Positions 1,887 through 34,694 of a stretch of 64,000 nt of DNA are shown piece by piece (positions within the stretch are counted from its first letter, which is position 1; each line of letters begins with the position of its first letter). The notes under the pieces were generated by a model. It ran no database searches and was not told the origin of the DNA. It was given only the letters and a program-made list of their open reading frames with translations. Made by a program: the position numbers and the translations under genes. Origin of the DNA: Burkholderiales bacterium 67-32 (GTDB lineage: Bacteria > Pseudomonadota > Gammaproteobacteria > Burkholderiales > Burkholderiaceae_B); the NCBI GenBank assembly GCA_001898625.1, contig MKUP01000028.1:124001-188000 (forward strand). The letters are read 5' to 3'.

Positions 1887-1928
1887 GGTCGTCTCCTGCT
1901 TGCGGGCGCTGTCATTGTTTTCCTTTAT

Positions 1929-1945
1929 ATTCCTAATTAAGGAAT
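1929..1945. promoter_or_regulatory. operator-like inverted repeat, copy 1
   Basis: ATTCCT-AATTA-AGGAAT, a perfect 6-bp inverted repeat with a 5-nt spacer, 43 bp upstream of the hydroxylase start. It shares the core TTCCT-N5-AGGAA with the second copy at 2060-2082. The TetR-family regulator encoded next door is the most likely binder; this is inference. Confidence 0.6.
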
Positions 1946-2059
1946 TTGTAGCGCAATTCTTGGCATGATCGAAATCATTGTCAATAGTCTTTGTCAGTCG
2001 GATCCATGGAATCAATCCTGTGTTTGCTTCGGGTCTGCGATTCGTGGAAATTCCTGTTG

Positions 2060-2082
2060 TTATTTCCTAAAAAAGGAAATAA
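2060..2082. promoter_or_regulatory. operator-like inverted repeat, copy 2
   Basis: TTATTTCCT and AGGAAATAA form perfect 9-bp arms around five A residues. The core TTCCT-N5-AGGAA is identical to copy 1, and the centres are 134 bp apart. It lies 29 bp upstream of the Bug gene start, in an AT-rich stretch suited to a promoter, so a repressor bound here would block that direction. Confidence 0.62.
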
Positions 2083-2111
2083 ATTATGCGAACAACGACA
2101 GGGAGACATCC

Positions 2112-3140
2112 ATGCATGCAACGAACGCCGCCGTGGCGGACCTGGGCCGGCGCCGCTGGTGGAAGGTGTCGGGGCGCCTGGCGCGCCGGTTCCTGCCCGG
2201 CGCCCTGCTGGCCCTGGCGGGCGCGCACGCCGCGCTTGCCGCGGAGTTCCCGGACCGGCCCATCACCATCATTTCTCCCTTCGCGCCGGGCGGCGCCGAT
2301 CTGTTCCTGCGCATCGTGGCGCCGAAACTGGGCGAGCAACTGGGCCAGCCGGTCGTCATCGAGAACGTCCCCGGCGCCGGTGGCATCCTGGGGGCGGAGC
2401 GGGTGATGCACGCGCAGCCGGATGGCTACACGCTGCTGTTCGCGCCGTCCAGCGTGACGGTCACTGCGAAGTTCCTGTCGGCCAACGTGCGCTTCGACAT
2501 CCTGAAGGACTTCACGCCGATCAGCCTGATGCACGAGACGCCCCAGGTGTTGTTCGTGCCGGGCGACCTGCCGGTCAATTCGGTGGCCGAGCTGATCGCC
2601 TACGCCAAGCAGCGGCCGGGCAAGCTGGCTTATGGCAGCGCGGGCATCGGCTCGGTCATGCAGTTCAACGCCGAGCTGTTCAAGATGGAGTCCGGCGCGG
2701 ACATCCTGCATGTGCCCTTCAAGGGCATCAGTCCCATGAATACCGAGATCCTGGGCGGCCGCGTGGCCATGGGCTTCTCCACCCTGGCCTCGGTGGCGCC
2801 TTTCATGAAGACGGGCAAGCTCAAGGTGCTGGCCGCGCTCGATGCCAAGCGCCTGCCGTTCCTGCCCGATACGCCGGCCATCACCGAGACGCTGCCGGGC
2901 TTTCGCACGGTGGGTACCTGGTCCTCGCTGCTGGGCCCCGCGGGCATGCCCAAGGCCATCCAGGAGCGCCTGACGCGGGCGATGAGCGCCGTGCTGGCGC
3001 AGCCCGACGTCAAGCGGTCGTACGACCTGAACTACGGCCTGATCATTGCCGGCTCGCCGGCCGACCTGACGCGGCGCCTGCAGAGCGAAATCGCGCAGAC
3101 CACGCGCATCGCCGACGCGGCGGGCATCCGTGCGGAATAG
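2112..3140 (+). CDS. Bug-family (TctC-like) periplasmic solute-binding protein
   Basis: A 342-residue extracytoplasmic receptor of the tripartite tricarboxylate transporter family. A long basic N-terminus and hydrophobic signal peptide (about residues 1-43, ending AALAA) precede the mature start EFPDRPITIISPFAPGG, the typical Bug N-terminal strand and ligand loop. Conserved Bug landmarks follow: VVIENVPGAGG, QPDGYTLLF, GSAGIGS and HVPFKG. The start at 2112 has GGGAG nine bases upstream and gives a proper signal peptide; the frame is open further upstream without one. No TctA or TctB membrane gene is nearby. It is divergent from the hydroxylase and probably brings in the substrate of this cluster. 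Confidence 0.9.
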   Translation: MHATNAAVADLGRRRWWKVSGRLARRFLPGALLALAGAHAALAAEFPDRPITIISPFAPGGADLFLRIVAPKLGEQLGQPVVIENVPGAGGILGAERVMHAQPDGYTLLFAPSSVTVTAKFLSANVRFDILKDFTPISLMHETPQVLFVPGDLPVNSVAELIAYAKQRPGKLAYGSAGIGSVMQFNAELFKMESGADILHVPFKGISPMNTEILGGRVAMGFSTLASVAPFMKTGKLKVLAALDAKRLPFLPDTPAITETLPGFRTVGTWSSLLGPAGMPKAIQERLTRAMSAVLAQPDVKRSYDLNYGLIIAGSPADLTRRLQSEIAQTTRIADAAGIRAE

Positions 3141-3232
3141 CGGCCGCGGCGGGGGGAGGCACGGGCCGCGCGAGGGCGGAACGGGTGGGGGGGCGTGCGA
3201 TAATCCGTCCCGGATCGAACCGGGTGGCGGGC

Positions 3233-3910
3233 ATGGCGCGCATGGCAAAGGAAAATTCGGAGTCCGGCGGGGAGCGCAAGCGCGGCAAGGGGCGGCCCTC
3301 GGGCGCGGAGGCCGCCGTCGGCCGCAACCGCATCCTCGAACTGACCGCGGAATTCCTGAAGACCCATCCGGTTTCCGAACTGAGCACGGTCAACATCGCC
3401 AAGGTCGCCGGCGTCGATCCGGCGCTGGTGCGCTACTACTTCGGATCCAAGAACGGCCTGCTGGCCGAGCTCATCTCCAAGTCCACCGGCGAGCGTACCG
3501 CGCTGAGCCTGCGCTACTTGTCCGATGCCGGGACGGCGGACAAGAAGCTCAAGCAGCGCGTGCGGTCGGTCCTGCAGGCCAACGTCGACAGCCCCTATTA
3601 CCACGAGGTGATGGTGGCCCGCATCTTCAATGCCGACGACGACGCGGCCCGGGCGATCCTGAACGATCTGGCCCAGCGCGGCCTCTACCTGGCCGAGAAG
3701 TTCATGGCGGACGGCGAGCGCAGCGGCGAGTTGCGGGCGGTCGACCCCGCCTTCTTCCACATGCTGGTGGTAGGGGCCTGCTCCTTCTTCGTGACGGGCC
3801 GGCCGCTGCAGGAAGCCATGCGCGGGCGCAAGGTCAACGACCGGACCCTGGATGCCTTCGCCGAGTTCTTCGTCGACGTCGTGCTGAACGGACTCAAGCC
3901 CCGGCCCTGA
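3233..3910 (+). CDS. TetR/AcrR-family transcriptional regulator
   Basis: A 225-residue regulator with a TetR N-terminal helix-turn-helix at about residues 32-75: NIAKVAGVDPALVRYYFGSK contains the classic recognition segment ending in YYFGSK. The C-terminal ligand-binding half is helical and not specific enough to name an effector. The start is uncertain: ATG at 3233 or the in-frame ATG at 3242; neither has a strong Shine-Dalgarno. It sits between the Bug gene and the amidohydrolase on the same strand, and is the natural candidate to bind the paired TTCCT-N5-AGGAA repeats in the divergent promoter. Confidence 0.88.
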   Translation: MARMAKENSESGGERKRGKGRPSGAEAAVGRNRILELTAEFLKTHPVSELSTVNIAKVAGVDPALVRYYFGSKNGLLAELISKSTGERTALSLRYLSDAGTADKKLKQRVRSVLQANVDSPYYHEVMVARIFNADDDAARAILNDLAQRGLYLAEKFMADGERSGELRAVDPAFFHMLVVGACSFFVTGRPLQEAMRGRKVNDRTLDAFAEFFVDVVLNGLKPRP

Positions 3911-3935
3911 CGGGCACGTCACTGGAGGGCAATCC

Positions 3936-4928
3936 ATGCTGAACGAGGGAATACCGGGCTGGCGCGCGCTGTGCCCGTGCTGCGTCGATTTCCATGCGCA
4001 CTTCATCCAGCGCGAGGTCTTCGAGCTGGCGCAGCCGCACAGCGTGTCCAGTTGCTTTGGGCAGCGGCCGCTGTCGGCCGACAATCCGCGCTTCCTGGGC
4101 ATGCTGGACCCGCAGCGGCAGGTCGACGACATGGCGGCGCGCGGCATCGATCGCCACGTGATTTCGTCGGCCGACGTCGTGGCGTCCCGGGCCTGGGCCG
4201 AGCCCGCCGAGGAGGCGCGGCAGGCCCGGCTGGTCAACGACATGGCGGCCGATTGGGTGCGCCGGTTCCCGGACCGGTTCGTGGGAACGTTCGTGCTGCC
4301 CCTGGGCGACATGGCGCTCGCCCTGCGCGAGATGGAGCGCGCGGTGGCGATGGGGCTGCGTGTGGCCAATCTGCCCAGCAACCATCGCGGCGGCTACCTG
4401 GGCGAGGCCCGCTACGAGGAAATGTGGAGTGCGATCGAAGAAAAGGCGCTGGTCGCCTTCATCCACCCCGACGGGGTCCGCGACCCGTGGTTCCAGGGCT
4501 ACGCGCTCTGGAACTCGATCGGCCAGTCCATCGAGGAGGTGAAGGTCATGTCCTCGCTGATCTACGAAGGCGTCATGGAGCGGCATCCGGCGCTGCGCAT
4601 CGTCATGGCCCACGGGGGCGGGTACATGCCCTATTACACGGGGCGGCTGGACCGCAATGCGACATACCGGCCGGACACCATGCGTAACCTGAGCAAGCCG
4701 CCCAGCCACTACCTGCAGCACTTCCACTACGATAGCTGCGTGTACGACCCGCACACGCTGGCGCTGCTGGTGCGCTGCGTGGGGGCGGACCGCATCGTCC
4801 TGGGCGGGGACTACCCCTTCGGCGACGCCGACCCGGTGGGTGGGCTGTCGGCGCTGGAGCCGGGGCAGCGGGCGGCGATCGCCGGGGGCAATGCCGTCCG
4901 GCTGCTGGATGGTGGGCGCGAGGCCTGA
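3936..4928 (+). CDS. amidohydrolase-family (ACMSD-like) metal-dependent enzyme
   Basis: A 330-residue TIM-barrel amidohydrolase. The N-terminal metal motif VDFHAHF puts two His at residues 20 and 22; a later FIHPDG, the MAHGGGYMPYY stretch and LGGDYPFGD supply the other expected His and Asp ligands. This arrangement is that of amidohydrolase family 2, including aminocarboxymuconate-semialdehyde decarboxylase and gamma-resorcylate decarboxylase, which carry out nonoxidative decarboxylations or hydrolyses of aromatic-pathway intermediates. GGAGGG lies eight bases before the ATG. It follows the TetR gene by 25 bp. The cluster as a whole fits breakdown of a hydroxylated aromatic acid, but the true reaction is not fixed by sequence. 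Confidence 0.85.
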   Translation: MLNEGIPGWRALCPCCVDFHAHFIQREVFELAQPHSVSSCFGQRPLSADNPRFLGMLDPQRQVDDMAARGIDRHVISSADVVASRAWAEPAEEARQARLVNDMAADWVRRFPDRFVGTFVLPLGDMALALREMERAVAMGLRVANLPSNHRGGYLGEARYEEMWSAIEEKALVAFIHPDGVRDPWFQGYALWNSIGQSIEEVKVMSSLIYEGVMERHPALRIVMAHGGGYMPYYTGRLDRNATYRPDTMRNLSKPPSHYLQHFHYDSCVYDPHTLALLVRCVGADRIVLGGDYPFGDADPVGGLSALEPGQRAAIAGGNAVRLLDGGREA

Positions 4929-4977
4929 GGAAAAGGCAGGGCGGTGCGGGTGGGGCGTTGTTTATTGCACGTGGAGC

Positions 4978-5009
4978 TTGCGGTCCCATACTGTTTTTTT
5001 ATACAGTAT
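4978..5009 (+). promoter_or_regulatory. recA promoter with LexA (SOS) box
   Basis: CTG-N10-CAG at 4991-5006, extended to ATACTG-N10-CAGTAT at 4988-5009, matches the proteobacterial LexA operator. It overlaps a plausible promoter, TTGCGG (4978-4983) and TATACA (5000-5005) with a 16-bp spacer, so LexA would cover the -10 element. recA starts 42 bp further on. Confidence 0.88.
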
Positions 5010-5051
5010 CGGGCAGTGCCATAATTCGCGCATCAACCCAAGGATCCCAGA

Positions 5052-6134
5052 ATGGACGACACCAAAGCTTCCAAGGCCGCAGCCGCTGCCCAGAACGAAA
5101 AGACCAAGGCCCTGGCCGCCGCGCTGTCCCAGATCGAAAAGCAGTTCGGCAAGGGCTCGGTCATGCGTTATGGCGACAACGAGGTCGAGCACGACATCCA
5201 GGTCGTCTCCACCGGTTCGCTCGGCCTGGACATCGCCCTGGGCGTCGGCGGCCTGCCGCGCGGCCGGGTCGTCGAGATCTACGGCCCGGAATCGTCGGGC
5301 AAGACCACGCTCACGCTGCAAGTCGTCGCCGAAATGCAGAAGCTGGGCGGCGCCTGCGCCTTCATCGACGCCGAGCACGCGCTCGACGTCCAGTACGCCT
5401 CCAAGCTGGGCGTGAACCTGACCGACCTGCTGATCTCGCAGCCCGACACCGGCGAACAGGCCCTGGAAATCACCGATGCGCTGGTGCGCTCGGGCGCGGT
5501 CGACCTGATCGTCATCGACTCGGTCGCGGCGCTGGTTCCCAAGGCCGAAATCGAAGGCGAAATGGGCGATTCCCTGCCCGGCCTGCAGGCCCGCCTGATG
5601 AGCCAGGCGCTGCGCAAGCTGACCGCCTCGATCAAGCGCACCAACTGCATGGTCATCTTCATCAACCAGATCCGGATGAAGATCGGTGTCATGTTCGGCA
5701 ACCCGGAAACCACCACCGGCGGCAACGCGCTGAAGTTCTACGCCTCGGTCCGCCTCGACATCCGCCGCACCGGCTCCATCAAGAAGGGCGACGAGGTCAT
5801 CGGCAACGAGACCCGCGTCAAGGTCGTCAAGAACAAGGTATCGCCGCCGTTCAAGAGCGCGGAATTCGACATCATGTACGGCGCCGGCATCTCGCGCGAA
5901 GGCGAAATCCTGGACCTGGGCGTGCAGGCAGGCATCGTCGAGAAGTCCGGTTCGTGGTTCAGCTATAACGGCGAGCGCATTGGCCAGGGTAAGGACAACG
6001 CCCGCGAGTTCCTGAAGGAACGCGTGGAAATGGCCATCGAGATCGAGAACCGCGTGCGCGACAACCTGGGCGTGGTCGCCCGGGTCGCCGGCGCCGGCAA
6101 AGTGACCGAAGCCGAACAGCTTGGAGACGAGTGA
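5052..6134 (+). CDS. recA: recombinase RecA
   Basis: A 360-residue RecA. Walker A GPESSGKT is at residues 78-85, followed by the conserved MAW region, the loop-2 stretch around [17 protein letters not shown], and the acidic/variable C-terminus. RecA coats single-stranded DNA, drives strand exchange and stimulates LexA self-cleavage. AAGGA lies upstream of the ATG. The LexA box in the promoter makes it part of the SOS response, and recX overlaps its 3' end, the usual arrangement in betaproteobacteria. Confidence 0.98.
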
Positions 6135-6603
6135 CGACGGCAAGCCCGCTTCCGGCCCTTCGTTGAAGGCCCGGGCGGTGGGCTATCTGTCCCGGCGCGA
6201 ACACAGCCGCCTGGAACTGGGCCGCAAGCTTGCCCGTTTCGGGGAAGAGGACGAGGTTCGCGCCGTGCTCGACAGCCTGGAAAAGGAAGGCTGGCTGTCC
6301 ACCGAGCGTTATGCGCAGAGCGTGGTGCACCGGCTGGCCGCCAAGCAGGGCACCCTGCGCATCATGCATGAGCTGCGCCAACATGGTGTGGCGGACACGC
6401 AGATCGCCGAGTTGCGGGGCACGCTCGAAACCACCGAGCTGGCCCGGGCGCGCGAGGTGTGGCGCAAGCGTTTCGGCACGCTGCCCGCCGATGCCGGCCA
6501 GCGTGCCAAGCAGGTACGCTTCCTGATGTCCCGGGGCTTCGGCCAGGGCACCATCAGGCAGGTGTTGCGGGGCGTCGATCTTGACGACCTGGATCAAGAC
6601 TAG
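6121..6603 (+). CDS. recX: regulatory protein RecX
   Basis: A 160-residue RecX, which binds RecA filaments and limits their growth. The conserved N-terminal pattern [16 protein letters not shown] and the helical repeats ending [14 protein letters not shown] fit the family. The conserved block begins near residue 15, so the start must lie upstream of the in-frame GTG at 6178. The only reasonable choice seen is TTG at 6121, overlapping the recA stop by 14 bp. No clear Shine-Dalgarno precedes it, which suggests translational coupling and low expression relative to recA. Confidence 0.93.
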
Positions 6604-6659
6604 GCCGCTTTCCCGAACCCCCGTACACTTTCCGCATCCGTTTTCGCCGCGAGGCCGTC

Positions 6660-6962
6660 ATGCGCGCATTGTTGCTGGCCCTGTGCCTGAGTGTGTCCAG
6701 CCTGTGGGCCTGCGCCCAGCCCGCTCCGCAGGCGGGCGACGTGATCACGCTGGAGGGACGCATCGTGCTCAAGGGCAACGAGCCTTTCGTCGTGGCCGTG
6801 CTCGAGTCGGGCGACCGGCAATGGGACCTGCGCGGCCTGACCCGGCAGCAGATGCAGGACCTGCAATCGCGCACCGTCACGGTCACCGGCACGGTGGCCC
6901 GTTCCGCCGGCGAGGCCGGCGGCGGGATGCCGGCGCAGTTGCAGGTGCAGTCCATCCGCTAG
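6660..6962 (+). CDS. small exported protein, possible lipoprotein, OB-fold-like
   Basis: A 100-residue protein with a hydrophobic signal segment (residues 1-19) ending LWAC, a borderline lipobox with Cys19. The remainder, GDVITLEGRIVLKGNEPFVVAV and later VTVTGTVARS, alternates strands in a way reminiscent of periplasmic OB-fold proteins. No defined function is recognised. CGAGG precedes the ATG. It lies between recX and the metallopeptidase gene on the same strand, 56 bp after recX. Confidence 0.72.
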   Translation: MRALLLALCLSVSSLWACAQPAPQAGDVITLEGRIVLKGNEPFVVAVLESGDRQWDLRGLTRQQMQDLQSRTVTVTGTVARSAGEAGGGMPAQLQVQSIR

Positions 6963-7010
6963 CCTGCGTGCCATGGTATGTTGCGCAAAAGCTTCTTCTG
7001 CGGGGGCAAG

Positions 7011-8636
7011 ATGAATCGCGATACCGTGGGTACCATCCGGACACTGGCCGGGATCTCGTTGGCGGCACTGCTGGCCTCCTGTGGAGGCGGTGGGGGCGGC
7101 GAGGTTTCCGGATCGGGTGTGTTGTCGGTGGCGTGCAGCGGCGCGCAATGCGGCGCTTCAGACGCCCAGACCTATCGCGGCAGCGGCGTCGGCGTCTGGC
7201 GCTACGACAATAGCGGTTCGAGTTCGGGCACGTCCGTGCCGATCACCCTCAACGGCGTCAGCGGCCGCACCGTCACCCTGGTCTTCACCAACGTGTCCGA
7301 CCGCGATGCCGGTATGGCCTCGGTCAGCACATCCGTCGCGGACCGGCCCGCCACCGCGTCGAAAGTGGAAGCCCCGTCCGATCCGGATCACCTGCCGGGC
7401 GTCAACCAGATCCCCGCGCACATCCGCGACTACCAGCCGCCGGTCGATCGCGCGTCCCAGCCGCAAGCCTCGGCGAGGCAAGGGCCTGCCGCCGCGGTGC
7501 GCGCCGCCGTCGAAGGCGATACGCGGGAATGGCAGGACAGCGGCGGTACGCGGTTCCAGGCCACGCTGGCCCGCCGCTGGGCGGCCACCGACGGGCGCTG
7601 GCTGAACATCTGGGTGCAGGACGGCGAGCGGTCCGCCGCGAAGGTGAGCGAGGCCCTGCTGGACAGCCTCAAGAGCCGGTTCTCGTCGAACCAGGATTCC
7701 GTCTATCCCATCGTGACCGATCTCGCGGGCGCGCCCTGGGGCGCCACCGTCGGCAGCGGCTATATCGGCGCTGACCAGGACCTGCACATCGTGCTGTCCA
7801 ACATCACGCCCGACGGCAAGGCCTGGGGCGTGATCGGCTATTTCTTCAGCGCCAATGCCTTCCTGAAGAGCTACGAGGGGCTCAGCAACGAGGCGGTGGT
7901 GCTGTTCCTGGACACCGAGACCATGTACCTGGGCGGCCAGGCGGGCCGGAACACCGGCTATACGACGCTGGCGCACGAGATGACCCACATGGTCAATTTC
8001 TACCAGCGCGCCGCGCGCACGGGCGTGAGTCCGGACAACCGGTTCGCGGTCTGGCTGGAAGAGACCACGGCATTGATGATGGAAGACCTGGCTTCGGGCC
8101 GGGTGGTGCCGGGCTTCAACCCGTTGCGGGATGGGGACTACGGCAACTGGCTCCACCAGAGCCAGAACTGCGATTACATCCGGGGCTGGGACGCCAGCGT
8201 GTCCTCCAGCTGTTTCTCGTATCCCATCGCGGCCAACTACGGCGGCTACCTGTTGCGGCAATACGGCACGGATTTCTACCGCAGCCTGCTGCGCGGCACC
8301 TCATCCACCGATTCGTTCACGCTGCTCGACCAGGCAGTCAGGCAGGCGGGCGGCGCGGGCGCGCGCCCGGCCTTGCGCGACTGGGGCGCGGCGCTGGCCC
8401 TGTTGCCCGCGTCGCCGCCGGCCGGGTTCGGTTATCCGCGCCGCACGCAGGGCGGCTACGACCTGCCCGCCATCAACGGTCCCGATTACGCCTCGCTGCG
8501 CACGCTGCCGTCCAGTTCGCCGTCCACGCTCAAGGCCTCGGGCCATTTCCCGGTGGTGCGCCGGCCGTCGGGCGCGTCGTACTCGGAAACCGTGGCGGTG
8601 CCGGCGGGTTCGGCCCTGACCGTCGTCGTCCAGTAG
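7011..8636 (+). CDS. lipoprotein metallopeptidase, M30 (hyicolysin)-like
   Basis: A 541-residue exported protein. The N-terminus has a lipoprotein signal with lipobox LASC at residues 21-24, followed by a run of six Gly. A zinc-protease motif HEMTH lies at residues 322-326 inside TTLAHEMTHMVNFYQ, with an acidic WLEETTALMMEDL about 23 residues later that could supply the third zinc ligand; this is the layout of peptidase family M30. The start at 7011 gives the correct signal peptide; an in-frame ATG at 6978 would put a charged extension ahead of it. It would act as a surface or periplasmic protease. Its stop is 1 bp from the metR stop, tail to tail, with no terminator between. Confidence 0.82.
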   Translation: MNRDTVGTIRTLAGISLAALLASCGGGGGGEVSGSGVLSVACSGAQCGASDAQTYRGSGVGVWRYDNSGSSSGTSVPITLNGVSGRTVTLVFTNVSDRDAGMASVSTSVADRPATASKVEAPSDPDHLPGVNQIPAHIRDYQPPVDRASQPQASARQGPAAAVRAAVEGDTREWQDSGGTRFQATLARRWAATDGRWLNIWVQDGERSAAKVSEALLDSLKSRFSSNQDSVYPIVTDLAGAPWGATVGSGYIGADQDLHIVLSNITPDGKAWGVIGYFFSANAFLKSYEGLSNEAVVLFLDTETMYLGGQAGRNTGYTTLAHEMTHMVNFYQRAARTGVSPDNRFAVWLEETTALMMEDLASGRVVPGFNPLRDGDYGNWLHQSQNCDYIRGWDASVSSSCFSYPIAANYGGYLLRQYGTDFYRSLLRGTSSTDSFTLLDQAVRQAGGAGARPALRDWGAALALLPASPPAGFGYPRRTQGGYDLPAINGPDYASLRTLPSSSPSTLKASGHFPVVRRPSGASYSETVAVPAGSALTVVVQ

Positions 8637-8637
8637 A

Positions 8638-9582
8638 TCAGGACCCGGGGGCTGCCTGGCGCTCGGCGCGGGGCGCCCGGATGCCGGTCAGGTTCCGGAA
8701 GGTCAGTTCGCGCGCGATGTCCAGGAAGTTCAGGATGTAGGGCGCGTCCTGGTCCTCGACCCGCACGCCCGCGTACAGCGTGCGCCAGACGCCTTCCGCG
8801 CCCAGGCGGCAGGCATGCAGCAGACCCTGGTCCAGGTATTCGGTCAGCGCCCAGTTGGGGATGGCCGTCACGCCGCGGCCGCTCGCCACGAGCTGGATGA
8901 TCATGGGCGTGAGCTCGGTGGTGCGGATTTCCGCGGGCTCGACGTCGGCAGGGTCCAGGAAGGCGGTGAAGATGTCCAGCCGGTCCCGCTCGACGGGGTA
9001 GGTGATCAGCGTCTGTTCCGCCAGTTGCGCCGGCTCCAGGGTCTTGAACGCCGCCAGCGGACTGTTGCGCGCCACGGCCAGCACCAGTTCGTAGCGGAAC
9101 AATGGCACGTAGCGCACCGCGTCCAGGCGGATGGGGTCGGACGTGATCACCAGGTCCAGGTCGCCGCGCACCAGCGCCGGCAGCGGCGCGAAGGAAAAGG
9201 CCGCGGACAGGTCCAGGACGACCTCGGGCCATTGCTCGCGGAACACGTCCAGCGCCGGCATCAGCCACTGGAAGCAGGAATGGCATTCGATGGCCAGGTG
9301 CAGGCGGCCGGTGCGTCCCGCCGCCAGGCGTGCCAGTTCCCGTTCGGCGGCGCGCATGCGGGGCAGGACGTCGTCGGCCAGGGCCAGCACGCGCAGGCCG
9401 GCCGTGGTGAAGCGCAGCGGGCGCGTGCGCCGGTTGAGCAACTGCGTGCCCAGGCGTTCTTCCAGTTCGCGCAACTGGTGCGACAGCGCGGACTGCGTGA
9501 CGTGCAGGCGCTCGGACGCTTCGACCAGGCTGCCGCCCTCGCGTATGGCGACCAGGGTTTCGAGGTGGCGGATGTCTATCAT
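8638..9582 (-). CDS. metR: LysR-type methionine biosynthesis regulator MetR
   Basis: A 314-residue LysR-type regulator. The N-terminal helix-turn-helix (about residues 18-45, EASERLHVTQSALSHQLREL) is typical, and the effector-domain opening LAIECHSCFQWLMPALD is the hallmark of MetR, which senses homocysteine. It is divergent from metE with 116 bp between starts, the classic metR-metE arrangement, and two TGA-N7-TCA elements lie in that interval. It therefore probably controls metE and its own synthesis. Confidence 0.93.
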   Translation of the reverse strand: MIDIRHLETLVAIREGGSLVEASERLHVTQSALSHQLRELEERLGTQLLNRRTRPLRFTTAGLRVLALADDVLPRMRAAERELARLAAGRTGRLHLAIECHSCFQWLMPALDVFREQWPEVVLDLSAAFSFAPLPALVRGDLDLVITSDPIRLDAVRYVPLFRYELVLAVARNSPLAAFKTLEPAQLAEQTLITYPVERDRLDIFTAFLDPADVEPAEIRTTELTPMIIQLVASGRGVTAIPNWALTEYLDQGLLHACRLGAEGVWRTLYAGVRVEDQDAPYILNFLDIARELTFRNLTGIRAPRAERQAAPGS

Positions 9583-14468: not shown

Positions 14469-15173
14469 GTGGAATTCGGATCAGCGGCCTTCATACTGGC
14501 CCTCATACAAATCATCTGGGTGAACATCCTGTTGTCGGGGGACAACGCGGTGGTCATCGCGCTGGCGGCTCGTTCGCTGCCGGCCCATCAACAAAAGAAA
14601 GCAATCGTGATCGGCTCTGCGGCCGCCATCGTGATGCGGATCGTCCTGACGCTGGTTGCGGCCCAATTGCTGCAACTGCCCTGGCTGAAGCTCATCGGCT
14701 CGCTGCTGCTGCTGTACATCGGTATTTCGCTGTTGTTGCCGGAAGGTGAAGAGGGCGAGGGCAAGCTGGCCAAGGACGGCCTGATGGCCGCCATCCGCAC
14801 CATCCTGATCGCCGACCTGGTCATGAGCCTGGACAACGTGATTGCCGTGGCGGCCGCCGCCATGGGCAATACCGTGCTCCTGGTTCTGGGCCTGGCCATC
14901 AGCATCCCGCTGGTGATCTTCGGCAGCACGCTGCTGCTGAAGGTCATCGAGCGCTTCCCGCTGATCGTCTGGCTGGGCGCCGCCCTGCTGGGCTTCATCG
15001 CGGGCGAGCTGTTCGTCAATGATCCGGCGCTGCACACCGAGGCCATCGAAGCCTCGATGGGCCTGACGCACCATGCCGCGGAAATCGGCGCGGGCATCCT
15101 GGGCGCCGTTATCGTGCTGGTGGTGGGCAAGGTGATGATGTCGCGGCGCCGGTCGAGCGATCAGCCTGCCTGA
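14469..15173 (+). CDS. TerC-family integral membrane protein (first copy)
   Basis: A 234-residue polytopic membrane protein of the TerC family, whose characterised members export Mn2+ or handle metals in the membrane. The two family signatures are present: SGDNAVVIALA near the N-terminus and VMSLDNVIAVA in the middle, each placing an Asp-Asn pair in a membrane helix. About seven hydrophobic segments are visible. The start is taken as GTG at 14469 because AGGAG lies six bases upstream; the frame is open to TTG at 14448, but that codon lies within the hairpin. A second family member follows 200 bp downstream. Confidence 0.88.
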   Translation: MEFGSAAFILALIQIIWVNILLSGDNAVVIALAARSLPAHQQKKAIVIGSAAAIVMRIVLTLVAAQLLQLPWLKLIGSLLLLYIGISLLLPEGEEGEGKLAKDGLMAAIRTILIADLVMSLDNVIAVAAAAMGNTVLLVLGLAISIPLVIFGSTLLLKVIERFPLIVWLGAALLGFIAGELFVNDPALHTEAIEASMGLTHHAAEIGAGILGAVIVLVVGKVMMSRRRSSDQPA

Positions 15174-15374: not shown

Positions 15375-16106
15375 GTGCTTGAATTTCTCCAGACGCTCAG
15401 CTGGGCGGCCGTATTTCAAATCATTCTGATCGACATCCTGCTGGGCGGGGACAACGCGGTGGTCATCGCGCTGGCCTGCCGCAACCTGCCTGCCAAGCGG
15501 CGGATGCAGGGGATCCTGTGGGGGACGGCGGGCGCCATCGTGCTGCGCGTCGTGCTCATCGCCTTCGCGGTCACGATGCTGCAGATTCCATTCCTGAAGA
15601 TCGTAGGCGGCGTACTGCTGTTCTGGATCGGCATCAAGCTGCTGGTGCCCGAGGATGAGTCGCACGAGGGCATCGAGGGCGGCGCCACGCTGCTGGGTGC
15701 GATCAAGACCATCATCGTCGCCGACTTCGTCATGAGCCTGGACAACGTCATCGCCATCGCGGGCGCGGCCCAGCAGGCGGAGGAATCCCACCAGATCGGC
15801 CTGGTCATCTTCGGCCTGCTGGTCAGCGTGCCCATCATCATCTGGGGCAGCACCCTGGTCCTGAAGCTGATCGACCGCTTCCCGGTCGTGGTGACGCTGG
15901 GCGGCGCGCTGCTGGGTTGGATTGCCGGCGGCATGCTGGCGACCGACGTCGCGGTCCAGTCCCATGTGATCCAGCCCAGTTCGCTGGCGGCCTACAACAC
16001 GCAGATCACCTATGCCGCGGAAATCCTGGGCGCGCTGATCGTCGTCGGGGTGGGCATGTGGTTGGCCCGCCGCAAGAAGGCGCAGCAGCCGGCCAGTCAC
16101 GCCTGA
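15375..16106 (+). CDS. TerC-family integral membrane protein (second copy)
   Basis: A 243-residue paralogue of the upstream TerC gene. It carries GGDNAVVIALACR and VMSLDNVIAIAGAAQQ, the same two Asp-Asn membrane motifs, and about seven membrane segments; a charged loop (PEDESHEG, about residues 94-101) splits the halves. GTG start at 15375 with AGGGAG seven bases upstream. The pair probably arose by duplication and then diverged, mainly in loops and C-terminus. It has its own terminated leader with competing hairpins, so it may respond to a metal or stress signal unlike the first copy. Metal export is inferred from the family. Confidence 0.88.
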   Translation: MLEFLQTLSWAAVFQIILIDILLGGDNAVVIALACRNLPAKRRMQGILWGTAGAIVLRVVLIAFAVTMLQIPFLKIVGGVLLFWIGIKLLVPEDESHEGIEGGATLLGAIKTIIVADFVMSLDNVIAIAGAAQQAEESHQIGLVIFGLLVSVPIIIWGSTLVLKLIDRFPVVVTLGGALLGWIAGGMLATDVAVQSHVIQPSSLAAYNTQITYAAEILGALIVVGVGMWLARRKKAQQPASHA

Positions 16107-29689: not shown

Positions 29690-29717
29690 AAAAGACCTCC
29701 CCGCGGGAGGTCTTTTT
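29690..29717 (+). terminator. intrinsic terminator of ppa
   Basis: GACCTCCC and GGGAGGTC form a perfect stem with a CGC loop, flanked by A and T tracts that extend it, and followed by TTTTT. It lies 21 bp after the ppa stop; the flanking A run could also serve the converging kinase gene. Confidence 0.92.
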
Positions 29718-29721
29718 CGTT

Positions 29722-31071
29722 TCACCGTTCGGTCATGGCAACAGGCACGATGACTTCCACGTGCAATCCGGATTGTCCTGAGACGTCGGCGTACCCAAGT
29801 CGAATTTCCGCGCCGATGCGGTCGGCGATCGCCCGGACGATTGCCAGGCCCAGGCCCGAGCCGATCTGCTCGTTGCCCAGCATGCGGTAGAACGGATCGA
29901 ACACGCGTGTCCGTTCGTCTGGCGGAATGCCGGGTCCGGTGTCCCGGATGCGCAGCACGATATGTGCTTGCGCCAGGCATACGGAAAGATCGACCCGGCC
30001 GCCGGCGGGTGTGTAGCGGATGGCGTTGTCGACCAGGTTCTTGACCAGGGCCACCAGATCCCGTTCATTCATCCATAGCTGGGCGTCCTGTCGGCCCTCG
30101 ACCCCGATGTCGATGCGTTTGGCTTGCGCCAGGGGTATCAGGTCTTCCAGGACATGGCGGTAGACGGCCTGGATGGATACCGGCGCCGTTGGCCGTTCGG
30201 CGGACGACTGCGTCCTGGCCAGGCCCAGCAGTTGATCAAGCAGCTTTCTGCCGCGCTCGATGCCTTGGCGCAGCACGGCCAGCCGCTCGTGTGCCGCGGC
30301 GGACATCTCCGTCTCCGACAGCCGCTCCGCCTGGAGCGACAGCGCGGTCAGCGGCGAACGCAGTTCGTGGGCCGCATCCGCGACGAAGCGGCGTTGAGCG
30401 TCCATGGACTGGGCCACACGGCCAAGAAGGCGGTTGATGGCAACGACGAACGGGCGTATTTCGGCGGGAACGCCGCGATCGTCGATGGCGTGCAGCGCTT
30501 GTTCGGAGCGTTGGTCGATATCCCGGGACAGGGCGGCGATGGGACGGAACATCTTGCGTATCAGGTCGGCCACGATCAGCAGCAGTACCGGGATCAGAAT
30601 GAGCAGCGGCATCACGGTGCGCCAGGCGCTGTCGCGGGCGATCTCGTTGCGGAACCCGGCCTCCTGGGCGACCGCGATCCGCTCGCCGCCGGACGTGGTC
30701 TTGACCAGGACGCGGAATGTCTCGCCACCGATCTTCAGCATTTGCAGGCCGTCCGGCAGTGTGGCGGGCAGGGAAAGGAAGGTGCCCGCGGCCGTGTCGA
30801 CGGACGACGCGGGCGATTCGGCCAGGCGCTGGACGAATACCTGCGATTCTTCGTCGCCGCCTCCGGGGCGCAAGGTCGGAGGCAGGTGCCGCGAATCGGT
30901 GAGCTGGGCCACCTGGCGCAGTACGTCGTCCTGTAGTTCATGAGCCTCTGCGAAAGCGGAGACGAACGAGAAGATGCCCGCCACGGCGGCCGCCGCGAGA
31001 ATCGCCAGCGACAACGTGAACGACAGTTTGCGCTGGACCGATGCGTTCAGGCGTTTTTGGAAACCATCCAT
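29722..31071 (-). CDS. sensor histidine kinase, QseC/PmrB-like
   Basis: A 449-residue two-component kinase. Two membrane helices (about residues 17-40 and 154-172) bracket a periplasmic sensor of about 110 residues; a HAMP-like linker follows, then the phosphoacceptor His235 in ADAAHELRSPLTAL and the ATPase boxes NLVDNAIRYTP, DTGPGIP and GSGLGLAI. It overlaps the response regulator gene by 25 bp, so the two are coupled. The sensor has an acidic patch (PGGGDEES) and no known ligand motif. Metal or cationic-peptide sensing is possible by analogy with PmrB/QseC. Confidence 0.93.
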   Translation of the reverse strand: MDGFQKRLNASVQRKLSFTLSLAILAAAAVAGIFSFVSAFAEAHELQDDVLRQVAQLTDSRHLPPTLRPGGGDEESQVFVQRLAESPASSVDTAAGTFLSLPATLPDGLQMLKIGGETFRVLVKTTSGGERIAVAQEAGFRNEIARDSAWRTVMPLLILIPVLLLIVADLIRKMFRPIAALSRDIDQRSEQALHAIDDRGVPAEIRPFVVAINRLLGRVAQSMDAQRRFVADAAHELRSPLTALSLQAERLSETEMSAAAHERLAVLRQGIERGRKLLDQLLGLARTQSSAERPTAPVSIQAVYRHVLEDLIPLAQAKRIDIGVEGRQDAQLWMNERDLVALVKNLVDNAIRYTPAGGRVDLSVCLAQAHIVLRIRDTGPGIPPDERTRVFDPFYRMLGNEQIGSGLGLAIVRAIADRIGAEIRLGYADVSGQSGLHVEVIVPVAMTER

Positions 31072-31712
31072 CCCACACCTCGGACGTTCTTGATAACCTC
31101 GTTGCCCAGTTTGCGCCGCAGCGCGTGGATCAGGTACTCGACGGCATTGCTTTCGACTTCTTCGCCCCAGCCGTAGATGCGGTCCTCCAGCTCGGTGCGC
31201 GACAGGATGGCGCCGGGCCGTTGCAGGAGGGCCTGGAGCAGCGAGAACTCGCGGTTGGACAGGCGGGCCGGCGGACCCCCGTGGACGCTGGCTTCCTTCG
31301 TCGCAGGATCGAGCACCACCTCGCCATTGCCGAGCACCGGCGCGGCGCTGCCGCTCTTGCGGCGCAGCACGGCCCGCATGCGGGCCAGCAGCTCCGCCAT
31401 CTCGAAGGGTTTGAGCACATAGTCGTCGGCGCCGCCGTCCAGGCCGCGCAATCGATCATCGAGCCCGTCGCGCGCGGTAATGACGAGCAAGGGAACCGGG
31501 TTGCCCCGGGAGCGTATGCTGGCCAGCACTTCCTGCCCGTCCCGGCCGGGCAGGCCCAGATCGAGGAGGACCAGATCGTAGTGTTGGCTGCCCAGCGCCA
31601 CGAGAGCGGCTTGTCCGTCTTTCACCCAGTCCGCGGCATGGGATGCATCCCTCAATGCGTCCTGGATCGCTGCTCCGATCATTGGATCATCTTCGGCAAG
31701 CAATATCCGCAT
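31047..31712 (-). CDS. response regulator, OmpR family (QseB/PmrA-like)
   Basis: A 221-residue regulator. The receiver has Asp8/Asp9, phosphorylation site Asp51 (LLDLGLPGRDG) and Lys101 (VLKPFE); the C-terminal winged helix (about residues 130-220) has EVESNAVEYLIHALRRKLG, typical of OmpR/PhoB DNA-binding domains of the QseB/PmrA branch. GGAGAG sits before the ATG. It follows the two COG4705 genes after 84 bp and precedes its kinase. An 11-bp-period direct repeat upstream of the COG4705 pair fits the binding style of this family. Confidence 0.94.
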   Translation of the reverse strand: MRILLAEDDPMIGAAIQDALRDASHAADWVKDGQAALVALGSQHYDLVLLDLGLPGRDGQEVLASIRSRGNPVPLLVITARDGLDDRLRGLDGGADDYVLKPFEMAELLARMRAVLRRKSGSAAPVLGNGEVVLDPATKEASVHGGPPARLSNREFSLLQALLQRPGAILSRTELEDRIYGWGEEVESNAVEYLIHALRRKLGNEVIKNVRGVGWMVSKNA

Positions 31713-31796
31713 CGTTTCTCTCCAACCCGTGTCTATTCGTCCCGGGCCGCCGTGGACCGTCGCATGAAGGCGTCTTCCGCCAATTTACGCCAGTTG

Positions 31797-32579
31797 TCAG
31801 TGGGCCATCCTGGCCGCCCGCTGTTTGAACAGCACGATGGCGACCAGCATGAAGGCCATCAGCGCGGCCGACGCGGAATACCGGCTCAGGGCCAGGCCTC
31901 CCGCATTCAGCGGTTTGTCCAGGAAGTCCCCCACCACGGCGCCCAGCGGGCGGGTCAGGATGAAGGCGGCCCAGAACAGCGCCGTGCGCGAGATGCGGGT
32001 CCATTGGCAGGCGGCCACCACCAAGGCCAGCAGCCCGCCGAACAACAGGGCCGCGCCGGTGTAGCCCAAGCCTGCCGTGTCGGCGGTCCAGTCGCCCAGT
32101 GCCGTGCCCAGGGTCTGGGAGAACATGATGGTCACCCAGTAGAAGGCCTCGGCCCGGGGCGAACTGACGGTGTCCACTGATACCGAACCCAGGGTACGGT
32201 GCCAGATCCAGAGGGAGCCCAGCAGCAGGGCCAGAAGCAGGCTGGAGCCGCCGGCGTAGCCGATGCCGAGCGAGCGGTCGGTGAAGTCGGCCAGCGTCGT
32301 GCCGACCGTGGTGGTGGCGATGATGGTGGTCCAGTACAGGAAGGGGTGAAACGCCCTGGCCCTGATCTGTGCGGCAACGGCGGCCAGGAAGACGGCCGCG
32401 AATATGGCCGTGCCGGCCAGGTAGCCCAGGTTCATGGACATGGAAACGGCGTCGCCGCCGGTCTCTCCCAGCGTGGTGGCCGCGATCTTGATGAGCCAGA
32501 AGCCCAGGGTGACTTCGGGGACCTTGGCCAGTGTTCGTTCTGCGGAGTGTGTCATCGAGGATCGATCCGACTGAGTCAT
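31797..32579 (-). CDS. COG4705-type integral membrane protein (second of tandem pair)
   Basis: A 260-residue multi-span membrane protein, paralogous to the gene just upstream. The pattern [FY]-W-x9-G-x4-D occurs four times, at FW27-28/G38/D43, YW82-83/G93/D98, YW147-148/G158/D163 and FW202-203/G213/D218, showing a fourfold internal repeat. Around eight hydrophobic spans are visible. Its ATG overlaps the upstream stop by 4 bp (ATGA), and the response regulator follows. The family's function is unknown to me; the repeated membrane Gly/Asp positions suggest an ion- or metal-binding channel or carrier, which is inference. Confidence 0.85.
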   Translation of the reverse strand: MTQSDRSSMTHSAERTLAKVPEVTLGFWLIKIAATTLGETGGDAVSMSMNLGYLAGTAIFAAVFLAAVAAQIRARAFHPFLYWTTIIATTTVGTTLADFTDRSLGIGYAGGSSLLLALLLGSLWIWHRTLGSVSVDTVSSPRAEAFYWVTIMFSQTLGTALGDWTADTAGLGYTGAALLFGGLLALVVAACQWTRISRTALFWAAFILTRPLGAVVGDFLDKPLNAGGLALSRYSASAALMAFMLVAIVLFKQRAARMAH

Positions 32580-33358
32580 TCAAGGGGTTGAGCGCGACGG
32601 CTGGCGTTCATGCCGATCTGTGCCGTGGCCACCAGCAGCACGATCACTGAAAGAAACAGCGAGCTCGTCCACAGGGTTCCCAGGCCCAGGCCGCCATCGG
32701 CGCGGGTCTGCGTAAGCAGGTCGCCAAGGGAGGCGCCGAAGGGGCGTGTCAGGATGTAGCCGATCCAAAAGGTCGATACCGCGCTGCCGCCCAGCCGCCA
32801 GACGCCGTAGGTCAGGGCAATCAGCGCGCCGAATACCGCGGCGCCCCCGGCGAAACCAAGACCCAGCGCTTCGGCCGCCAGGTCGCCGGCAGCCGTCCCC
32901 AGGGCGAAGGTGCACAGGATCGCGGCCCAATAGAACGACTCGCGGCGCCGCGTCGCGATGTCATGGATGGACAAGGTGTGCTCGGTCCGATGCCAAGCCT
33001 GGAAAATCGCCGCGAGCATGACCGCGAACACCGAGGTGCTGAGATACAGGCTGACACCCAGGCCATCGGTCAGCAGGTCGGTGATCTGGGTACCGACCAC
33101 ACTGACCAACACCACGCTCAGCCAGTAGATCCACGGGGTGTAGCGGCGGGTGCGCAACTGCAGGAACAAGGCAATGGCGAGCAGTATCACCGTGAACACG
33201 GTGGTCGCGCCCAGGCCCCAACCCGCGTCGAATGCCAGGAAGTCCGCGCCGGTTTCGCCCACCGTGGTGGACATGATCTTGATGATCCAGAAGGTCAGGG
33301 TAACTGCCGGGACCTTGTTGAGCCAGCCGGTGTCCTGGGTCGTGGGCAATGTGCGCAT
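32576..33358 (-). CDS. COG4705-type integral membrane protein (first of tandem pair)
   Basis: A 260-residue membrane protein with the same fourfold motif as its neighbour: FW23-24/G34/D39, YW78-79/G89/D94, YW143-144/G154/D159 and FW197-198/G208/D213, each [FY]-W-x9-G-x4-D. Spacing between units is about 55, 65 and 54 residues, like the paralogue's 55, 65 and 55, so the two proteins are full-length duplicates of a four-unit ancestor. GGAGAG lies four bases before the ATG but is part of a 10-bp inverted repeat. First gene of the unit that continues into the two-component system. Function unknown. Confidence 0.85.
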   Translation of the reverse strand: MRTLPTTQDTGWLNKVPAVTLTFWIIKIMSTTVGETGADFLAFDAGWGLGATTVFTVILLAIALFLQLRTRRYTPWIYWLSVVLVSVVGTQITDLLTDGLGVSLYLSTSVFAVMLAAIFQAWHRTEHTLSIHDIATRRRESFYWAAILCTFALGTAAGDLAAEALGLGFAGGAAVFGALIALTYGVWRLGGSAVSTFWIGYILTRPFGASLGDLLTQTRADGGLGLGTLWTSSLFLSVIVLLVATAQIGMNASRRAQPLE

Positions 33359-33362
33359 GCGG

Positions 33363-33408
33363 CTCTCCAGCCGAGTTCAGAGGGGGTGCGTGAAGTCTGG
33401 CTGGAGAG
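33363..33408 (-). promoter_or_regulatory. inverted repeat covering the Shine-Dalgarno of the COG4705 pair
   Basis: CTCTCCAGCC and GGCTGGAGAG are perfect 10-bp complements separated by 26 nt. On the minus strand the second arm contains GGAGAG, the ribosome site, four bases from the ATG at 33358. If transcribed, the arms would pair and hide the ribosome site, so translation could depend on a signal that opens the hairpin. Confidence 0.5.
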
Positions 33409-33409
33409 A

Positions 33410-33425
33410 CTTAGCCCAGGCTTAG
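33410..33425. promoter_or_regulatory. direct repeat resembling a PmrA/QseB-type box
   Basis: CTTAG-N6-CTTAG, two direct copies with an 11-bp period, lies 52-67 bp upstream of the first COG4705 gene. OmpR-family regulators of the PmrA/QseB type bind such repeats (PmrA: CTTAA(G/T)-N5-CTTAA(G/T)). The adjacent response regulator is the obvious candidate, giving an autoregulated four-gene operon. Confidence 0.5.
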
Positions 33426-33437
33426 GGCTTGCTGTGT

Positions 33438-34694
33438 TCAGCGGGCGCGACGCACGATCCCTTGTGCCGCCAGTTCCTCGATGCGCTGGGGCGACAGCCC
33501 GGCCAGCGTTTCCAGGATTTCCTGCGTGTGGGCGCCGGGGAGCGGCGCCGGCGTGTCGTAGCCGGCCTGGCCGGCGCTGAACTTGATGGGGAAGCCGGGC
33601 GCGCTGGCGGCCATGTCGGTACCGGTCATGGGGTTGTGCACCGGGACCACCATGCCGCGCTCGCGCAGTTGCCGCCATTGCATGACCTCGTCGATGCTGC
33701 GGACCGGGCTGCACGGCACCTTGGCCATGTGCAGGGTCTGGACGATGTCCTGGGTGGCGCGCGCCTCGGTCCAGGCGGACACGATGGCGTCGACCTGCGC
33801 GTTGTGGGCGATGCGCCAGCCCAGGTCGTTCATCCGCGCATCGCCCGTCAGGTCGTGCCGGTCCATCGCGCCCAGCAGGGCGGTCCAGTCGGTGGCGGTG
33901 GCCGCGCCCAGCACCACCCAGCCATCGCGCGAGCGGTAGACGTTGAAGGGCGAGAACCGCATGATGCGGCTGCCCTGGCGGTGGGGCAGGCCCAGCCGCT
34001 CGTAGCAGTCGAAGGGTTCGTCGAACATCAGCGAGAACAGGCAGTCGGCCATCGAGACGTCCACCGCCTGGCCGCGTCCCGTGCGCTGGCGGTGCAGCAG
34101 GGCGGCCAGGATGCCGGACGCGGCGAACACGCCGGCGATGGCGTCGGACAGCGGCGAGCCGGTCTTGACCGGGGGGCCGCCGGCTTCGCCGGTCACGCTC
34201 ATCAGACCCACCGCCGCCTGCACCATCAGGTCGTAGGCCTTGAGATGGCGGTCGGAACCGGTCGAGCCATATCCCGTCAGGGAGCAATAGACGATGCCGG
34301 GATTGACCGCCGCCAGCGCGTCATAGCCCACCCCCAGCCGGTCCGCCACGCCCGCGCTGAAGTTGTCGATCACGACGTCGGCGCCGGCCACCAGGCGTAG
34401 GAACACTTCGCGGCCCGCTTCCGACTTCAGGTCCAGCATGACCGATTGCTTGCCGCGCGCGCGTTTCAGGTAGGCCAGGCCCATGTCGGCGTCCGATGTC
34501 CGCTGGAAGGACACGCCGCCGGGGCCGGCGTAGGGGGGAGAAAACGCGGTGGGGTCGCCCGTGGCGGGATCGTCGATCTTCACGACCTGCGCGCCCATGC
34601 CCGCGAGGAACAGGGTGGCCTGCGGACCCGAGAAAAAGCGGGTCAGGTCCAATACGAGGGTCCCGGACAATATCTTCTGCATGGTCTGGTTCAT
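33438..34694 (-). CDS. CaiB/BaiF-family (class III) CoA transferase
   Basis: A 418-residue family III CoA transferase, which moves CoA between carboxylic acids through aspartyl-CoA intermediates. The opening VLDLTRFFSGPQATLFLAGM, VVKIDDPATGD, SVMLDLKS and DVVIDNFSAG are family blocks; the catalytic Asp is probably Asp155 in KAYDLMVQA. It is transcribed alone on the minus strand toward the COG4705 operon, with the next LysR gene (same strand) 80 bp upstream, so it may be co-transcribed with that regulator. Substrate unknown. Confidence 0.9.
   Translation of the reverse strand: MNQTMQKILSGTLVLDLTRFFSGPQATLFLAGMGAQVVKIDDPATGDPTAFSPPYAGPGGVSFQRTSDADMGLAYLKRARGKQSVMLDLKSEAGREVFLRLVAGADVVIDNFSAGVADRLGVGYDALAAVNPGIVYCSLTGYGSTGSDRHLKAYDLMVQAAVGLMSVTGEAGGPPVKTGSPLSDAIAGVFAASGILAALLHRQRTGRGQAVDVSMADCLFSLMFDEPFDCYERLGLPHRQGSRIMRFSPFNVYRSRDGWVVLGAATATDWTALLGAMDRHDLTGDARMNDLGWRIAHNAQVDAIVSAWTEARATQDIVQTLHMAKVPCSPVRSIDEVMQWRQLRERGMVVPVHNPMTGTDMAASAPGFPIKFSAGQAGYDTPAPLPGAHTQEILETLAGLSPQRIEELAAQGIVRRAR

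What the first reader, a model, noticed from the sequence alone, without database searches (positions are those of the whole stretch)
31797..33358. Tandem COG4705 proteins carry [FY]-W-x9-G-x4-D exactly four times each
All eight units have identical spacing: FW/YW, nine residues, Gly, four residues, Asp. Both proteins are thus internal fourfold repeats and duplicates of one another. Four membrane Gly/Asp sites per chain would suit a pseudo-tetrameric ion or metal site, or a heterodimer of eight units. I know of no described function.
Basis: partly seen in the sequence, partly recalled or inferred. Interest (0 to 1): 0.7.

Follow-up and report, generated by a model that had tools for sequence, protein, structure and literature searches.

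The report
Metal-responsive DUF347 membrane protein pair
Two related membrane proteins, each built from four repeats of one small unit, sit in a compact gene cassette that matches a known but poorly understood bacterial response to toxic metals; the repeat is ordinary for its family, while the DNA switch that seems to control the cassette looks new.

Summary
In detail: both ORFs (31797-32579 and 32576-33358, minus strand) carry [FY]W-x9-G-x4-D exactly four times. It is not special to this locus but the signature of Pfam DUF347 (PF03988), four repeats per protein. The two proteins are old paralogues, and each occurs without the other elsewhere. With the adjacent response regulator and kinase they match mmfC1, mmfC2, mmfR and mmfS of transposon Tn6048, reported as strongly induced by zinc and lead. 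Apparently new: (1) the four genes and their promoter form a ~3.7-kb insert behind ppa, with an empty site in 2 of 5 congeners examined; (2) a direct repeat CTAAG-N6-CTAAG, present once in the 6.66-Mb genome, starts 67 bp before the operon, and close matches lie upstream of 19 of 30 regulator-linked DUF347 operons; (3) on one plasmid the pair known as qseBC beside mcr-9 is MmfRS-like and sits with a DUF347 gene and this box. Best mechanism: MmfRS senses metal stress and activates eight-helix inner-membrane proteins that probably export a divalent metal; the transport step is inferred. Structure prediction was off, so the pseudo-tetramer idea is untested. An obligatory heterodimer is unlikely.

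The parts
31797..32579 (-). A: DUF347 protein, MmfC2 type, 260 aa
   Evidence: 88% identical to the pAKD16 mmfC2 product
32576..33358 (-). B: DUF347 protein, MmfC1 type, 260 aa
   Evidence: in the C1 clade of the tree
31047..31712 (-). Response regulator, MmfR-like (OmpR class)
   Evidence: 85% identical to the pAKD16 copy; below the QseB and PmrA cut-offs
29722..31071 (-). Sensor histidine kinase, MmfS-like
   Evidence: 70% identical to the pAKD16 copy; below the QseC cut-off
33410..33425 (-). Candidate MmfR operator CTAAG-N6-CTAAG, starting 67 bp before the ATG of B
33394..33399 (-). Candidate -10 hexamer CAGACT, ten bases after the operator
   Evidence: read from the alignment of eight upstream regions; inference
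29718..33444 (.). Inserted unit: kinase, regulator, A, B and promoter, behind the ppa terminator (limits good to about 20 bases)
   Evidence: flanks meet in relatives L194 and L196
32451..32501 (-). A, motif copy 1 (residues 27-43)
32286..32336 (-). A, motif copy 2 (residues 82-98)
32091..32141 (-). A, motif copy 3 (residues 147-163)
31926..31976 (-). A, motif copy 4 (residues 202-218)
33242..33292 (-). B, motif copy 1 (residues 23-39)
33077..33127 (-). B, motif copy 2 (residues 78-94)
32882..32932 (-). B, motif copy 3 (residues 143-159)
32720..32770 (-). B, motif copy 4 (residues 197-213)

Best explanation
The two ORFs are MmfC1- and MmfC2-type DUF347 proteins in a reduced mmf cassette (C1-C2-R-S), acquired as one insert behind ppa. 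SHOWN by sequence: family, gene order, insert limits, four repeats in one register, a shared upstream box. INFERRED with fair confidence: MmfS responds to metal stress at the outer face of the inner membrane, and MmfR binds CTAWG-N6-CTAAG over the -35 region and switches the operon on. INFERRED with moderate confidence: each DUF347 protein is an eight-helix inner-membrane transporter with both ends inside; each hairpin has W near the cytoplasmic face, G mid-helix and D toward the periplasm; invariant K31 and E39 (repeat 1) and R210 (repeat 4) break the symmetry; it moves a divalent metal of the Zn/Pb class outwards. In larger versions it works with a PAP2 phosphatase and a PepSY protein, which may trap the exported metal. 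A and B are parallel members of the family, not obligatory halves of one pore. My odds are about 0.95 for the mmf identity, 0.85 for the regulation and 0.45 for metal export; the figure given is for the statement as a whole.
For: Gene order and identity to Tn6048 mmf. Papers: Tn6048 genes highly induced by Zn and Pb (PMC2864759; PMC12029693); DUF347-UppP operons up-regulated by lead in Frankia, with an export-precipitation proposal (PMC4531530). Box: once in the genome, at this operon; 9/10 or better in 19 of 30 regulator-linked regions and 8 of 50 others, other periods at most 1 of 30; in 11 of 11 further loci. PepSY and PAP2 genes cluster near DUF347 (18 vs 1 and 12 vs 0 loci, near vs far, of 80). 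DUF347 and the close MmfR occur in the same 2 of 11 genomes of the genus. Loop charges give both ends inside and all Asp outside in 150 of 151 rows.
Against: No transport has been measured for any DUF347 protein in what I saw. One study read its plasmid data as Fe/V import, not export (PMC4914505). A review gives DUF347 a part in precipitation, with export by CopA (PMC11534348). P1B-ATPase and RND genes are not enriched near DUF347 (3 vs 4 and 0 vs 7), whereas envelope-type genes are. No profile likeness to TerC, GDT1, MntP or DUF368. The Frankia paper gives six, not eight, membrane segments.
Confidence: 0.5

Rival explanations
1. DUF347 proteins act on lipid-linked carriers (undecaprenyl phosphate or lipid A), for example as flippases or partners of PAP2 phosphatases, and repair the envelope when metals or cationic peptides harm it. 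The metal link would be through damage, not cargo.
For: PAP2 (12 near, 0 far) and EamA (6 near, 0 far) genes cluster with DUF347; the EamA product has weak likeness to ArnE/ArnF; DedA or VTT genes lie beside or near DUF347 in three plasmid loci; pHB44 gave bacitracin resistance (PMC4914505); the regulator is of the QseB/PmrA kind; DUF347 lies near mcr-9 and mcr-10.
Against: Zn/Pb induction in papers; the window cassette has no PAP2 or EamA gene; no profile likeness to DUF368; bacitracin resistance was also given by a plasmid with only mmfA and mmfB, so it need not involve DUF347.
Confidence: 0.25
2. DUF347 proteins import or capture metal, as proposed for the mmf insert of pHB44 (Fe, V).
For: pHB44 carriage helped growth without added Fe or V and slowed it with added metal (PMC4914505, passages).
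Against: A whole plasmid was compared, not the genes; induction by excess Zn and Pb suits export or defence better.
Confidence: 0.1
3. DUF347 is a membrane co-sensor of the kinase and sets the response of MmfS rather than transporting anything.
For: An RR gene lies within 3 kb in 35 and an HK gene in 30 of 80 loci. In this genus DUF347 and the close MmfR occur in the same 2 of 11 genomes.
Against: 50 of 80 examined regions have no MmfR-like regulator beside DUF347.
Confidence: 0.1

Closest known systems
Pfam DUF347 (PF03988), Repeat of Unknown Function
   Same: Both proteins score far over the cut-off with four repeats each; this is the family itself.
   Different: Nothing in the repeat pattern differs; what is special is the pair in one small cassette with its own regulator.
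mmf cluster of Tn6048 (Cupriavidus metallidurans, pAKD16, pBS64, pBVIE02)
   Same: Order C1, C2, R, S and high identity.
   Different: mmfA (PepSY), mmfB (PAP2), mmfD and eamA are missing and the insert has no room for transposition genes.
QseBC and PmrAB two-component systems
   Same: Best NCBIfam matches of the regulator; an 11-bp direct-repeat operator of similar make-up to the PmrA box (the PmrA box is recalled, not read).
   Different: Scores are well below the curated cut-offs, and the linked genes differ.
PbrA-PbrB lead export and phosphate trapping (C. metallidurans)
   Same: A metal-induced membrane protein beside a PAP2 phosphatase in full mmf clusters, as proposed for Frankia (PMC4531530).
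   Different: PbrA is an ATPase; DUF347 matches no ATPase family. The PAP2 partner is absent from this cassette.

Membership tests
DUF347 (PF03988) | Score over the Pfam cut-off of 28.2 bits | tested here: met
   201 and 179.1 bits
DUF347 (PF03988) | Four repeats per chain | tested here: met
   Four stretches each; four motif copies each
mmf cluster of Tn6048 | mmfC1, mmfC2, mmfR, mmfS in this order | tested here: met
mmf cluster of Tn6048 | mmfA, mmfB, mmfD and eamA present | tested here: not met
   No match beside the operon
mmf cluster of Tn6048 | Carried by transposition genes tniABQR | tested here: not met
   The insert seen against L194 and L196 is filled by the four genes and promoter
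mmf cluster of Tn6048 | Induced by zinc and lead | not testable with these tools
   Known from papers for Tn6048 only
QseBC | NCBIfam equivalog cut-offs for QseB and QseC | tested here: not met
   202 of 345 and 216.8 of 475 bits
PmrAB | NCBIfam equivalog cut-offs for PmrA and PmrB | tested here: not met
   199.9 of 330 and 139.7 of 314 bits
MFS permease (label used for MmfC in papers) | Match to an MFS family of Pfam | tested here: not met
   DUF347 is the only family listed at E up to 10
TerC, GDT1, MntP or DUF368 transporters | Profile-profile likeness | tested here: not met
   hhalign probability 0.0 to 0.6%, against 100% for A vs B as control; small, mechanically chosen alignments of 13, 6, 1 and 6 rows
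Pseudo-tetrameric metal channel or transporter | Four Asp around one axis in a structure or model | not testable with these tools
   Structure prediction off; coevolution underpowered; no solved relative by sequence

The most novel reading that the evidence does not exclude
DUF347 is a separate class of metal transporter: one chain with four parallel two-helix units around a pseudo-fourfold axis, four invariant Asp at the outer mouth, and a Lys/Glu/Arg set from repeats 1 and 4 as gate. It would be the output of a widespread MmfRS / CTAAG-N6-CTAAG metal regulon, to which the regulator pair beside mcr-9 also belongs.
Probability: 0.25. Interest if true: 0.75.

Novelty: new member of a known kind. 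Interest (0 to 1): 0.42.

Why it matters
DUF347 was found in 25 of 200 sampled genomes of the phylum, own genome included, 23 of them over the cut-off. It keeps K31, E39 and R210 unchanged in all 151 rows compared, and I found no solved relative and, in the papers seen, no proven function. A small cassette with a candidate operator makes the function testable with a deletion and a reporter. The same kind of regulator and box beside mcr-9 suggest that a pair named qseBC in many papers may be a metal-response system, which could bear on the conflicting reports about mcr-9 induction.

Tried and rejected
Fold by AlphaFold: not available. Solved relatives by sequence: none for A alone or for the A2 profile. 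NCBIfam: no family for A or B. Coevolution: 151 rows, 85 effective; contacts within a hairpin, the positive control, were barely above expectation (4 seen, 2.9 expected for repeat 1), so the excess between helix 1a and 4b (7 against 2.9) is not used as evidence of ring closure.

RNA hairpin over the ribosome site of B (window 33340-33409, z -3.31): eight aligned upstream regions do not support a shared structure (-0.46 kcal/mol), so no function is claimed. P1B-ATPase and RND neighbours were tempting as metal evidence (7 and 4 loci) but are not enriched near DUF347, so they are not used for it. TerC, GDT1, MntP and DUF368 as relatives: no profile likeness.

Limits of counts: the 80 genome loci are the best 80 of 594 confirmed matches to an A-first alignment and so lean to A-type; L042 and L043 gave the same gene layout and boxes. 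In one search one of 81 loci (L108) had too short a region and was dropped; the window, where the box was first seen, is one of the 30. Rows were chosen for four motif copies, and one search used 99 proteins of which all had four, so W, G and D conservation is by construction; that of K31, E39, R210 and E144 is not. The outer-loop Asp/Glu count includes the motif Asp. In one search, 14 of 17 loci gave a start codon by my rule; the box is at -66 to -70 in 9 of them (L119 repeats L033), at -126, -97, -89 and -61 in four, and L162 showed none under that pattern (a 9/10 box at -64). The exact box has no hit on 7 of 9 plasmid or chromid records, Tn6048 carriers included; L033 has the CTATG form. 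Of 12 plasmid loci 7 have no 9/10 box at all, and the single hits in L165 and L167 are on the other strand and not upstream of DUF347. mcr-10.1 has no box of 8/10 or better in the 200 bp before it. The Tn6048 copy on pAKD16 is held to be a laboratory capture from C. metallidurans (PMC11952213), so it is not a separate natural case.

Full report
OBSERVATION. The finding is real at the stated coordinates. Two 260-aa ORFs on the minus strand, A (31797-32579) and B (32576-33358), overlap by four bases. Each has [FY]W-x9-G-x4-D exactly four times; none of 20,000 shuffles of either had more than one. Pfam reports four DUF347 stretches in each, and the repeat profiles align to one another in one register. 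A and B are 37% identical and are the only DUF347 genes found in this genome.

NOT SPECIAL TO THIS LOCUS. The motif is the family signature. Of 101 DUF347 ORFs found by score in 80 other loci, 100 have four copies and one is a fragment; the spacing is 55/65/55 in 79 of the 100 and 55/65/54 in 17. Twelve of 12 plasmid members from four phyla have four. Besides W, G and D, the residues K31, E39 and R210 are the same in all 151 rows compared, and E144 in 150.

TOPOLOGY (inferred). Segments set by me from the motif positions give a mean of 7.05 Lys/Arg in inner loops and 1.93 in outer ones; the inner count is larger in 150 of 151 rows and tied in one. This suits eight helices, both ends inside and all four Asp toward the outside. 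A Bacillota member has, after helix eight, a basic stretch, one more hydrophobic segment and a long tail (read by eye), which fits a C-terminus inside. Solved structures gave no relative, and structure prediction was off.

A AND B. In a FastTree of 151 proteins they fall in two clades of 109 and 42 rows, split by a long branch with support 100. B-type is the only DUF347 match in genomes G287 and G328, and five rows of an unnamed family (f39), whose genomes have one four-repeat gene each, lie in the B clade. A-type stands without B in 59 of 80 fetched stretches. The two are old paralogues that can occur apart.

THE CASSETTE. Next to A lie a response regulator (31047-31712) and a kinase (29722-31071). 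The order B, A, RR, HK is that of mmfC1, (mmfD), mmfC2, mmfR, mmfS in Tn6048 and relatives, with RR 85% and HK 70% identical to the pAKD16 copy. [quoted passage not shown] mmf is upregulated by Pb and Zn, and MmfC is labelled a putative MFS permease (PMC12029693), a label for which I find no Pfam support. A Frankia study proposed DUF347 with UppP as an export-precipitation system for lead and cites a metal-induced diatom DUF347 (PMC4531530; the diatom paper was not read). A review instead gives DUF347 a part in precipitation after export by CopA (PMC11534348). A Variovorax plasmid study proposed Fe/V import, and bacitracin resistance by mmfB (PMC4914505).

INSERT. Of the 11 genomes held for the genus, own included, 2 have DUF347, and the same 2 have the close MmfR; the others have only 50-56% regulators, of which this genome also has one. 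I looked at the ppa junction in 5 of the 10 congeners. In L194 and L196 the flanks, 94-96% identical, meet within about 20 bases behind what looks like the ppa terminator. In L195 another 2.3-kb insert sits there. In L158 HK, RR and an A-type gene sit there, with a different right flank. In L197 the right flank differs too. The four genes with their promoter are thus one acquired unit, at a site that takes other inserts.

OPERATOR. The bases before B hold CTAAGCCTGGGCTAAG (33410-33425, minus strand). The exact pattern occurs once in the genome, here; the same pattern read backwards, as control, occurs 7 times. At 9/10 or better it lies upstream of 19 of 30 DUF347 operons with an MmfR-like regulator and 8 of 50 without one; periods of 9, 10, 12 or 13 give at most 1 of 30 and 0 of 50. 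The window is one of the 30 and is where the box was found. In 11 further loci, fetched after a search with B, all have a box at or just upstream of the first gene, and in L150 a separate PAP2 gene has its own. These loci are related to one another, but in eight aligned upstream regions the half-sites are nearly invariant (the first reads CTAAG or CTATG) while most N6 positions vary, and a CAGACT-like hexamer follows ten bases on in seven of the eight, as expected for an activator over the -35 region (inference). On a Klebsiella plasmid with four exact boxes and no control hit, three start 64, 85 and 76 bp before a DUF347 gene, a small secreted protein followed by a second DUF347 gene, and a PepSY gene. 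The exact box is missing from the other 7 of 9 records apart from two hits on the mcr-9 plasmid.

NEIGHBOURS. Within 3 kb against farther off, loci of 80: RR 35 vs 6, HK 30 vs 11, PepSY 18 vs 1, PAP2 12 vs 0, EamA 6 vs 0, P1B-ATPase 3 vs 4, RND 0 vs 7 (449 kb near, 381 kb far). The steady partners act at the envelope, and this keeps the lipid rival alive.

MECHANISM. Most likely MmfS reads metal stress, MmfR activates the operon through the box, and DUF347 proteins move metal outwards, in larger clusters with a phosphatase and a PepSY protein that may trap it. Sensing, binding and transport are inferred; family, gene order, box and insert are shown. The kinase has a conserved EAxELQDD-like stretch after its first helix (35 kinases), which could bind metal but also resembles QseC-type kinases in general (recalled).

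MCR-9. On NZ_CP072971.1 a DUF347 gene, an RR and an HK lie near mcr-9.1. The RR is 64% and the HK 45% identical to those of the window, and they score below the QseB, PmrA and QseC cut-offs. An exact box starts 89 bp before DUF347 and a 9/10 box 129 bp before mcr-9.1; on an mcr-10.1 plasmid the DUF347 gene has a 9/10 box but mcr-10.1 has none of 8/10 or better. Papers call the pair qseBC and report conflicting roles (PMC7229202, PMC10714742, passages). The ranking shows no paper of the library with mcr-9, qseB, qseC and DUF347 together, and none with mcr-9 and the three binding terms tried.

VERDICT. The repeat is an ordinary, known family trait, and the locus is a reduced member of a known cluster. 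The candidate operator, the exact unit and the mcr-9 link look new within the searches named.

Noticed in passing
L170 (NZ_CP072971.1) 172-8932; L162 (NZ_CP094842.1) 2526-5765: DUF347 genes lie beside mcr-9.1 and mcr-10.1. The regulator pair near mcr-9.1, of the kind that papers name qseBC, is MmfRS-like (64% and 45% identity), with an exact box before DUF347 and a 9/10 box before mcr-9.1, none before mcr-10.1.
   Followed up: partly
window 29690-29720; L195 5866-8187: The site behind the ppa terminator takes different inserts: the mmf unit here and in L158, another 2.3-kb insert in L195, nothing in L194 and L196.
   Followed up: partly
window 14508-15020 and 15414-15944, + strand: Two TerC-family genes stand close together in the same window.
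   Followed up: no
window 33340-33409, minus strand: A strong hairpin (z -3.31) covers the ribosome site of B; a shared structure is not supported in eight relatives.
   Followed up: yes
L165 4968-6482; L164 4968-6233: DUF347 proteins of a Bacillota and an Actinomycetota plasmid carry an extra hydrophobic segment and a long polar tail, doubled in L165, with no convincing Pfam match.
   Followed up: no
L240 8252-8620 and L170 8564-8932: The same small secreted protein with repeated YCNPxSxxCxAPF units lies 85 bp behind an exact box on both plasmids.
   Followed up: no
L150 9284-9969: A PAP2 phosphatase gene apart from the DUF347 operon and on the other strand has its own 9/10 box.
   Followed up: no
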